Positions 18,651 to 19,860 of a stretch of DNA of 22,794 bases are shown here, one piece after another; positions within the stretch are counted from its first letter, which is position 1; each line of letters starts with the position of its first letter. Below the pieces are notes generated by a model that worked only from the letters and a program-made list of their open reading frames with translations, did not search any database and had not been told where the DNA came from. The translations under genes and the position numbers were made by a program. The DNA comes from a virus, in IMG/VR virus record IMGVR_UViG_3300005253_000301, positions 1 to 22,794 of that record; one strand, written 5' to 3'.

Positions 18651-18955
18651 TGAAGTTCGTACTCGACTGGACGCACAAGGTCGTACACGTTAAGCCCCTT
18701 CTCGTGGGGTGTGACGCCGACTTCCTAGACGAGGAGATACTCGCGGAACTTCGCCGCGACCTCCCTCGGCTAATGGCGGAGATATACGACAAACCTACGG
18801 AGGCAACAGAGGAAGAGGCAGCGTCACTCCTAGCCGAGGAAGGATTCGGGGTATGCAAGGGGTGCGCTCAAGGTTGGGCAGACTCGCAAGAGGAGAAACG
18901 AGAGATAGGCCGTATCAAGAAACGGATACGTGCTAGAGGCGCATTGCGAGCATGA
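18650..18955 (+). CDS. Hypothetical helical protein
   Basis: A 101-aa protein. A short N-terminal strand is followed by long acidic helices (about 25-68) and a very basic C-terminal helix (KKRIRARGALRA). One CxxC pair is seen (VCKGCAQGW), with no partner pair. It is coupled to neighbours on both sides (TAATG at the start, ATGA at the end). No family recognised; the charge segregation would suit an adaptor or nucleic-acid contact, which is speculation. Confidence 0.6.
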   Translation: MKFVLDWTHKVVHVKPLLVGCDADFLDEEILAELRRDLPRLMAEIYDKPTEATEEEAASLLAEEGFGVCKGCAQGWADSQEEKREIGRIKKRIRARGALRA

Positions 18956-19860
18956 CCGACAACGTGTTCCGAGACCCGCCACGCGTCAATCGCGTCGCGC
19001 TGCGAGAACGTCGACGGGTAGAGGCGCTTGGAACACTCTCAGCCGGAGTAGTGGCGATACCTAAGTCTGCCTCGGATACAGTGGGACTTGCCATCACCGA
19101 GACGACGTTGGTGCAAGCAGGAGTGGCGGCGTCCGACCTCGTAAATCTCGCTGTCTCTGAGAACGTCGCTAGTCTGAAAATCTCGCTTAGTAGTACGGAG
19201 ATACTGGGTCTAGGAATAAGCGAGCAGAATCAGCTCACAGTGAGTCTCAGCGCGTCTGATGCGGTGTCCCTCGCTGCGGTTGACGGGGTGAGCGCATTAC
19301 AAGCGAATCTCGCGGCCTCGGATGCAGTCAACCTGGGAATCGTGGAAGGAACGCCACTACTAGCGGTCGCTCTCTCAGCCTCAGATGCCGTGACGCTCGA
19401 CCTAATAGGTGCCTCCGACCTGGTGAAAATCGACATCATCACACAGGCTGACCTTCCTGACTTACTAGACGAGATAGCTGACTGCATCAAGCCCGTAGCG
19501 GGCATCAGAGACGTAGATGCGTTCGCGCCGGTTAATCTCGGAGCGTTGCCGCGAGTAGTTCTCAGGTACTCCGACACGCCCTGGTCGCTCACCCCGAACA
19601 GGAACGAAGTGCGCCACGAGGTTTCAGCGGAGATAGTCTTCGCCCCAATCGAGGAATGGAAGCGAGCGCGACGAGGAGCCGCCCAGCTCGTGAACGACGT
19701 AAAGGCCACGCTCCAACCAGGACCGACATCCTGCATCACGTCCGGCACGGTCTCGCTCGGAGTCACCGCGCTGCGGGAGCGACGGTACCACGACAACCTG
19801 TACGCGGCAGTCACCATCAACATACGCATAGTGGAGGTAACAAGCGTCACCTTTGCCTAA
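18952..19860 (+). CDS. Repeat protein fused to a second tail-terminator-like domain
   Basis: A 302-aa protein. Residues 1-38 are basic. Residues 39-162 hold six degenerate 20-21 residue units with the core [SA]-A-S-D-x-V-x-L-x-[IV], e.g. ASDLVNLAVSE, ASDAVSLAAVD and ASDAVNLGIVE, predicting a regular beta stack. Residues about 170-302 are clearly related to the 148-aa tail terminator at 7644-8090. Both share DVD-x-F, GALPRVVLRYSDTPW, FAPIEEWKRARRGAAQLVND and the closing DNLY strand pair. The result is a terminator fold carried on a repeat arm, at the end of the fibre region. It starts at an ATGA overlap. It may be a tail appendage or an alternative terminator; the role is unknown. Confidence 0.7.
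   Translation: MTDNVFRDPPRVNRVALRERRRVEALGTLSAGVVAIPKSASDTVGLAITETTLVQAGVAASDLVNLAVSENVASLKISLSSTEILGLGISEQNQLTVSLSASDAVSLAAVDGVSALQANLAASDAVNLGIVEGTPLLAVALSASDAVTLDLIGASDLVKIDIITQADLPDLLDEIADCIKPVAGIRDVDAFAPVNLGALPRVVLRYSDTPWSLTPNRNEVRHEVSAEIVFAPIEEWKRARRGAAQLVNDVKATLQPGPTSCITSGTVSLGVTALRERRYHDNLYAAVTINIRIVEVTSVTFA

What the first reader, a model, noticed from the sequence alone, without database searches (positions are those of the whole stretch)
18952..19860. Tail-terminator domain duplicated and fused to a 20-21 residue repeat arm
Residues 170-302 are plainly related to the tail terminator at 7644-8090 (GALPR[IV]VLRY, DVD-x-F, the RRA-rich helix, the DN[IL]Y strand pair). Residues 39-162 are six repeats with the ASD-x-V-x-L core. 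A second terminator fold at the far end of the fibre genes, on a repeat stalk, is unusual. It may decorate the tail or head-tail joint, or form a repeated-ring appendage.
Basis: partly seen in the sequence, partly recalled or inferred. Interest (0 to 1): 0.7.

Follow-up and report, generated by a model that had tools for sequence, protein, structure and literature searches.

The report
Tail-terminator copy fused to repeat arm
An uncultured phage carries, besides its normal tail-capping protein, a second copy of that protein's fold joined to a short arm of six repeats, most likely a part that clips onto the particle and adds an outward-facing appendage.

Summary
Residues 163-302 of the 302-aa protein at 18952-19860 are a paralogue of the 148-aa protein at 7644-8090 (37% identity, E 5e-30; 97 bits against at most 25 for 1000 shuffles). 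Both are predicted with the tail-terminator fold: the best Foldseek and VIA matches in the PDB are terminators of R4C, lambda, T5, Mu and R-pyocin. Residues 39-162 are six repeats of 20-21 residues, each predicted as two short strands. The same repeat occurs in long fibre-region proteins of 4 of 30 other phage records (a fifth weakly), there without a terminator domain. The duplication is old: 30 of 56 shared residues use different codons.

I found no second example of the fusion. The best reading is an accessory virion protein in which the terminator-fold domain is the anchor, probably ring-forming, and the repeats point outward, perhaps as a neck collar. This would work like the lactococcal neck passage protein, a duplicated tail-ring domain carrying a fibre and encoded beyond the receptor-binding gene, but with a different anchor fold. 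Ring formation, neck rather than tail-tip location, and function are inferred. The evidence rests on one contig. It is a new variant of a known kind, of moderate interest.

The parts
18952..19860 (+). 302-aa arm-plus-terminator-fold protein; start codon overlaps the stop of the upstream gene (ATGA)
18952..19065 (+). N-terminal 38 residues, net charge +4, short predicted helix 14-25, low confidence
19066..19437 (+). repeat arm, residues 39-162: six 20-21-residue repeats beginning at residues 40, 60, 81, 101, 122, 143; net charge -12; two predicted strands per repeat
19438..19857 (+). terminator-fold domain, residues 163-302, paralogue of 7644-8090
7644..8090 (+). the phage's ordinary tail terminator, 148 aa, TTG start
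   Evidence: gene position plus fold:
7042..7581 (+). tail completion / Neck1-type protein (context)
   Evidence: phrog_5 E 0.0011
6234..7052 (+). head-tail adaptor (context)
   Evidence: phrog_442 E 1.5e-7
8343..9380 (+). putative tail tube protein, by position only (context)
   Evidence: no family hit
10121..12742 (+). tape measure protein (context)
   Evidence: phrog_991 E 6.3e-65, PhageMin_Tail
16017..16439 (+). fibre-region protein of phrog_23653, used to find 30 phages with related fibre regions (conserved part starts about 16062)
18650..18955 (+). 101-aa gene directly upstream, overlapping the arm gene; no confident family

Best explanation
The protein is an accessory virion appendage made from a duplicated tail terminator. 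Its C-terminal domain (163-302) keeps the terminator fold, and probably its ability to sit in or form a six-fold ring; this is the anchor. The N-terminal repeats (39-162) form a short beta-repeat stalk that leaves the domain at its first helix. In solved terminators the helices lie outside the lumen-lining sheet, so the stalk should point outward. I place it at the head-proximal end of the tail (neck or collar), stacked on, around or mixed with the ordinary terminator ring. There it would thicken the collar, carry or contact another fibre protein, or make weak first contact with the host. Shown: paralogy, repeats, intact frame, gene position. Predicted: both folds. Inferred: ring formation, outward arm, neck location, role.
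For: Paralogy E 5e-30, 97.4 against at most 25.4 bits for shuffles. Foldseek PDB for the full model: all 50 listed rows are phage, prophage or phage-like neck, collar, terminator, tail or cap chains, best 3fz2_C lambda gpU at 4.8e-4; VIA: T5 p142 8bcp_B Z 11.3, rmsd 3.6, 128 aligned, residues 162-299. The ordinary copy: R4C terminator 5e-5, lambda 8iyd_G Z 12.0, rmsd 2.9, 126 aligned. The only Pfam family listed for the isolated domain at E <= 10 is Tail_completion_gp17, below cut-off (13.1 bits, E 0.1). It is also that family's only match in the window. Identity between the copies is high in elements that make subunit contacts in T5 (loop/b1 54%, b2 67%, alpha2 48%) and low at the b2-b3 tip that touches the tube (22%) (mapping by topology is mine). 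The arm repeat recurs in fibre-region proteins of other phages. A duplicated ring domain plus fibre, encoded after the receptor-binding gene and forming a neck collar, exists in TP901-1 and 936 phages.
Against: The gene lies among fibre genes, which fits a tail-tip part as well. No virion data. Known from a single contig. Six repeats make a short stalk (about 3 nm if one solenoid turn per repeat, recalled rise), and no receptor-binding domain was found at its free end. T5 contacts also use b3 and the N-terminus, which here are only 33% and 19% identical. Model confidence is moderate (pLDDT 65.9, pTM 0.40), and both models used alignments containing both paralogues. A non-phage chain (7muq, Dot/Icm) also reaches Z 10.8.
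Confidence: 0.5

Rival explanations
1. Tail-tip part: the terminator-fold domain docks the protein at the distal end of the tail (on the hub or last tube ring) or joins fibre proteins, and the repeats are part of the fibre network.
For: The gene follows the tip and fibre genes (12742-18955). The arm repeat occurs in fibre-region proteins of other phages, e.g. after a LamG domain in P0003. The terminator fold is described as related to the tail-tube domain fold, a common building block in phage proteins.
Against: Terminators in the solved structures listed sit at the head-proximal end. Lactococcal neck passage proteins show that a neck part can be encoded after the receptor-binding gene, so gene position does not decide.
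Confidence: 0.28
2. Alternative terminator: the arm protein replaces some or all ordinary terminator subunits, so that rings are mixed or a fraction of virions carries an armed cap.
For: Good conservation of several ring-contact elements; same predicted fold.
Against: The b2-b3 tip, which touches the tube in T5, is among the parts that diverged most (22%, one residue shorter, lost positive charge). Gene far from the terminator's own operon position.
Confidence: 0.12
3. Not a virion part: a leftover or regulatory duplicate, for example a soluble competitor in tail assembly, with the repeat picked up by recombination.
For: Single contig; no homologous fusion found.
Against: Intact frame, start overlapping the upstream gene's stop, GC by codon position like its neighbours, and 37% identity kept after an old duplication (30 of 56 shared residues use different codons) argue for selection.
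Confidence: 0.07
4. Assembly chimera or annotation artefact.
For: The only near-identical contig (L001, 11.3 kb) ends before this gene, so the right half has no second witness.
Against: The domain is specifically related to the terminator of the same contig and lies in one open frame with the arm.
Confidence: 0.03

Closest known systems
Siphophage tail terminators (lambda gpU, T5 p142, SPP1 gp17 / PF11367, R4C terminator)
   Same: Predicted fold of residues 163-302 and of the 7644-8090 protein; weak PF11367 match of the arm protein's domain only.
   Different: Those are stand-alone genes next to the tube gene. Here a second copy sits at the far end of the fibre genes with an N-terminal repeat arm.
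Neck passage structure (NPS) proteins of TP901-1, Tuc2009, phiLC3 and 936 lactococcal phages
   Same: Design: a ring-forming domain resembling that of the BppU tail protein, fused to an extended part, encoded downstream of the receptor-binding gene in TP901-1, Tuc2009 and phiLC3, making a collar.
   Different: The NPS anchor is a BppU-type beta-sandwich at the N-terminus, the stalk a trimeric coiled coil, the tip a CBM, and the protein 500-900 aa. Here the anchor is a terminator fold at the C-terminus, with a beta-repeat stalk and no tip domain found.
PVC16 cap protein and double terminators (T4 gp3/gp15, P2 gpR/gpS)
   Same: Terminator fold duplicated within one particle, or two terminator proteins in one tail.
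   Different: There the extra copy still caps the tube or sheath; no repeat arm is described in the passages I read.
ASD-x-L-x-L repeat proteins in phage contigs L005, L019, L020, L022
   Same: Same 20-21-residue repeat, in the fibre region.
   Different: Proteins of 705-2475 aa with more repeats (L022 has only six), in P0003 with a LamG domain. None of the 30 records has a match to the two-paralogue terminator profile.

Membership tests
Tail terminator (gpU/gp17/p142 superfamily), protein 7644-8090 | terminator fold | tested here: met
   Foldseek 8gtf_k 5.0e-5; VIA lambda 8iyd_G Z 12.0, rmsd 2.9, 126 aligned; model pLDDT 60.7
Tail terminator (gpU/gp17/p142 superfamily), protein 7644-8090 | gene between the neck genes and the tube/tape-measure genes | tested here: met
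   adaptor 6234, Neck1 7042, this gene 7644, putative tube 8343, tape measure 10121
Tail terminator (gpU/gp17/p142 superfamily), domain 163-302 of 18952-19860 | terminator fold | tested here: met
   Foldseek 3fz2_C 4.8e-4; VIA T5 8bcp_B Z 11.3, rmsd 3.6, 128 aligned
Tail terminator (gpU/gp17/p142 superfamily), domain 163-302 of 18952-19860 | homology to the phage's own terminator | tested here: met
   E 5e-30
Tail terminator, as the protein that caps the tube: 18952-19860 | gene between the neck genes and the tube gene | tested here: not met
   gene follows the fibre genes; the slot is filled by 7644-8090. I therefore file the protein as a terminator-fold paralogue, not as the phage's tail terminator
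PF11367 Tail_completion_gp17 | score above the curated cut-off | tested here: not met
   domain 13.1 bits against 24.5; no hit for 7644-8090
Tail terminator, as the protein that caps the tube: 18952-19860 | hexameric ring that stops tube growth | not testable with these tools
   no multimer prediction or assembly assay
Neck passage structure proteins | BppU-type N-terminal beta-sandwich anchor | tested here: inconclusive
   the N-terminus is the repeat arm and the only confident fold is the C-terminal terminator fold; the arm was not searched alone
Neck passage structure proteins | encoded downstream of receptor-binding/fibre genes | tested here: met
   last gene of the putative tail and fibre block
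Neck passage structure proteins | carbohydrate-binding tip domain | tested here: not met
   no Pfam match for the protein at E <= 1, and no binding-domain match in PHROGs or NCBIfam
Neck passage structure proteins | located at the neck | not testable with these tools
   needs virion imaging

The most novel reading that the evidence does not exclude
A tailed phage has turned its tail-terminator fold into an appendage anchor. Each virion would carry two kinds of terminator-fold subunit (a second ring, or one mixed ring), and the second kind would display outward beta-repeat stalks at the neck. No such use of the terminator turned up in the searches made here.
Probability: 0.42. Interest if true: 0.65.

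Novelty: new variant of a known kind. Interest (0 to 1): 0.5.

Why it matters
Terminators are treated as a tube cap plus head dock. A paralogue that keeps much of the ring-contact elements, changes the tube-contact tip and gains a stalk would show a route by which phages make neck appendages out of a core ring protein. It would be parallel to, but independent of, the BppU-type collar of lactococcal phages. It also gives a simple test of how neck fibres attach, which the TP901-1 modelling paper says is not known at molecular level.

Tried and rejected
Closer relatives of the fusion or of either domain: none beyond the near-identical fragment L001 (viral contigs; genome contigs; phages by tblastn; PDB sequences). 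Relatives of the phage by portal and capsid in viral contigs: only L001; tube: none in phages. The pattern search reaches close relatives only, so absence is weak evidence. The two-paralogue profile over 30 related records found nothing and had no positive control.

Sequence link to terminators of related phages: profile comparison with the PF11367 terminator of the L019 phage and with the annotated terminator of Rhodococcus phage REQ1 gave no alignment. Sequence alone therefore does not join these copies to known terminators, apart from the sub-threshold PF11367 match.

Arm repeats in a MAG protein beside a phrog_23653 homologue (L037 8099-9688) looked similar by eye but scored no better than reversed or shuffled sequence with composition correction (20.4 bits against 22.3 and 21.2), so dropped. 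Among the four accepted repeat proteins, P0004 is the weakest: 34.3 bits against 30.8 for its own reverse. The triple-repeat profile passed 1e-3 in only two of the four (L019, L020). Arm tblastn against phages: nothing (low-complexity filter is on).

BFVD search: 48 of 50 listed rows are 112-219-aa proteins, i.e. single-domain terminator size. Two are longer (H9YRW0, 421 aa; A0A6J5RH99, 687 aa) and align over most of the model, but at rmsd 14 and TM below 0.3. I could not read them; they are leads for other fusions. No arm-specific fold was established: the Awp1 and tailspike-like rows lie at Z 7.5-7.6, within background. Recent DNA duplication was rejected: 50% nucleotide identity over aligned codons.

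Papers: seven searches gave no report of a terminator fused to a repeat arm or of a terminator paralogue in the fibre region. Subscription journals are largely not held. I read section 5 of PMC11784142; passages only of PMC4493119, PMC6669499, PMC10747895, PMC9692632, PMC12886913; other papers as search listings.

Full report
WHAT IS THERE. The window is a 22,794-base IMG/VR virus record, linear, probably a fragment. Its left two thirds hold a head-tail module: portal (955), prohead protease (2569), HK97-type capsid (3552), head-tail adaptor (6234), Neck1-type protein (7042), a 148-aa protein (7644), a putative tube protein (8343, by position only) and the tape measure (10121). Tip and fibre-region genes follow to about 18.95 kb. 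The 302-aa ORF at 18952-19860 closes this block; its ATG overlaps the stop of the 101-aa gene before it. GC by codon position is in line with the neighbours.

THE DUPLICATION. Residues 163-301 align with the whole 148-aa protein: 37% identity, 97.8 bits, E 5e-30. In 1000 shuffles of the domain the best score was 25.4 bits. It is the only paralogous pair at E <= 0.01 among the 30 window translations compared, three of them wrongly delimited. Of 56 identical residues, 30 use different codons, and nucleotide identity over aligned codons is 50%. So this is an old duplication, or an exchange with a relative, and the protein similarity has been kept.

THE FOLD. The 148-aa protein was modelled with the two-paralogue alignment (pLDDT 60.7, pTM 0.59) and the 302-aa protein with 12 sequences (pLDDT 65.9, pTM 0.40). 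Both show helix, strand, long strand pair, helix, strand pair. Foldseek against the PDB puts terminators on top for both: R4C terminator 5.0e-5 for the short protein, lambda gpU 4.8e-4 for the long one. All 50 listed rows for the long protein are phage, prophage or phage-like neck, collar, terminator, tail or cap chains. VIA-align gives Z 12.0 (lambda, rmsd 2.9, 126 aligned) and Z 11.3 (T5 p142, rmsd 3.6, 128 aligned, residues 162-299). The second list also holds unrelated chains, the highest a Dot/Icm chain at Z 10.8, then collagenases near 7.7. The two models are not fully independent, because each alignment contains both paralogues. A sequence hint not based on structure is that the isolated domain's only Pfam match up to E 10 is Tail_completion_gp17 (13.1 bits, below the 24.5 cut-off), also that family's only match in the window. 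Direct profile comparisons with two terminators from related phages were negative. This fits the statement in PMC11784142, section 5, that terminators share 7-18% identity.

THE ARM. Six repeats start at residues 40, 60, 81, 101, 122 and 143. Autocorrelation peaks at 21 and 41 (0.69 at best; shuffle mean 0.04, maximum 0.62 of 1000). The model gives two short strands per repeat, 12 in all, at pLDDT about 62-75, a beta-solenoid-like array; no known fold was established for it. The repeat is not private. Using the fibre-region protein at 16017 I pulled 30 phage loci. Long repeat proteins with the same 20-21 spacing occur in 4 of the 30 records (L005, L019, L020, L022), and a fifth (L025, at a contig end) matches at E 0.002. 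None of 100 shuffled arms hit the ORF set at 1e-3, while all four real proteins did. Against shuffles of the same proteins the real scores are 34-38 bits against at most 22 with composition correction, though P0004 in reverse reaches 30.8. In L019 the repeats follow a LamG domain and that phage has a separate 139-aa PF11367 terminator. So the arm is a mobile fibre-region module, and its union with a terminator domain is what is unusual here.

HOW IT PROBABLY WORKS. In T5 the terminator's sheet lines the lumen and its helices flank it. Neighbouring subunits touch through b1 and the termini on one side and b3, helix 2 and the 22-29 loop on the other. The tube below is touched by the tip of one loop (PMC11784142 section 5). 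In phage 812 the core sheets line the channel and helices lie on the outside (passage of PMC12886913). Mapped by topology, which is my inference, the two copies are most alike in the loop and b1 (54%), b2 (67%), helix 2 (48%) and b5 (47%). They are least alike in helix 1 (19%), the b2-b3 tip (22%) and the hairpin after helix 2 (21%); b3 is intermediate at 33%. This pattern suggests, without proving, that ring contacts were kept and the tube contact was released. The arm joins at the N-terminus of helix 1, on the outer side, so a ring of these domains would carry outward stalks. I favour the neck because terminators work there and because lactococcal phages show the same logic. Their neck passage gene lies downstream of the receptor-binding gene, its N-terminal domain resembles the BppU ring domain of the tail, and a ring of these domains is proposed to form the collar (passages of PMC4493119, PMC6669499, PMC10747895, PMC9692632). 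A tail-tip role remains open (0.28), as does an armed alternative cap (0.12). The stalk is short, about 3 nm if each repeat is one solenoid turn (recalled rise), and no binding domain was found at its free end, so a long host-catching whisker is unlikely; a collar element or a docking site for another protein fits better.

NOVELTY. Terminator duplication itself is known (PVC16; paired terminators in T4 and P2), and appendages hung on duplicated ring domains are known. A terminator-fold anchor with a repeat arm was not found in seven paper searches or in the sequence and structure searches. Two longer BFVD proteins are unread leads. The case rests on one contig; the only overlapping contig, L001, ends inside the tape measure gene. 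Verdict: real, a new variant of a known kind, interest 0.5.

Noticed in passing
window 12742-15261: The 839-aa tip-region protein carries a domain matching NCBIfam GTA_spike_fiber (43.4 bits, cut-off 36; residues 89-247), overlapping a sub-threshold CBM_4_9 match.
   Followed up: no
window 16017-16439 and L004-L033: A small fibre-region protein (phrog_23653) is shared with 30 phage contigs, among them one matching Rhodococcus phage REQ1 in length; its coding DNA also matches REQ1 and Jflix2. Gene order around it differs: a transferable fibre part.
   Followed up: partly
L022 12951-20375: A 2475-aa open frame with dozens of near-identical 12-13-residue units (LTGVSRIQVTT / TQTGVANIKNNT type) followed by six ASD-type repeats like those of the arm.
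   Followed up: no
L019 10679-13936 and L038 1402-1821: A phage with the same arm repeats on a LamG protein and a stand-alone PF11367 terminator: a possible picture of the parts before fusion.
   Followed up: partly
window 15263-15841: The 192-aa protein resembles the C-terminal part of a 597-position virion structural family (phrog_13989, E 3.2e-7).
   Followed up: no
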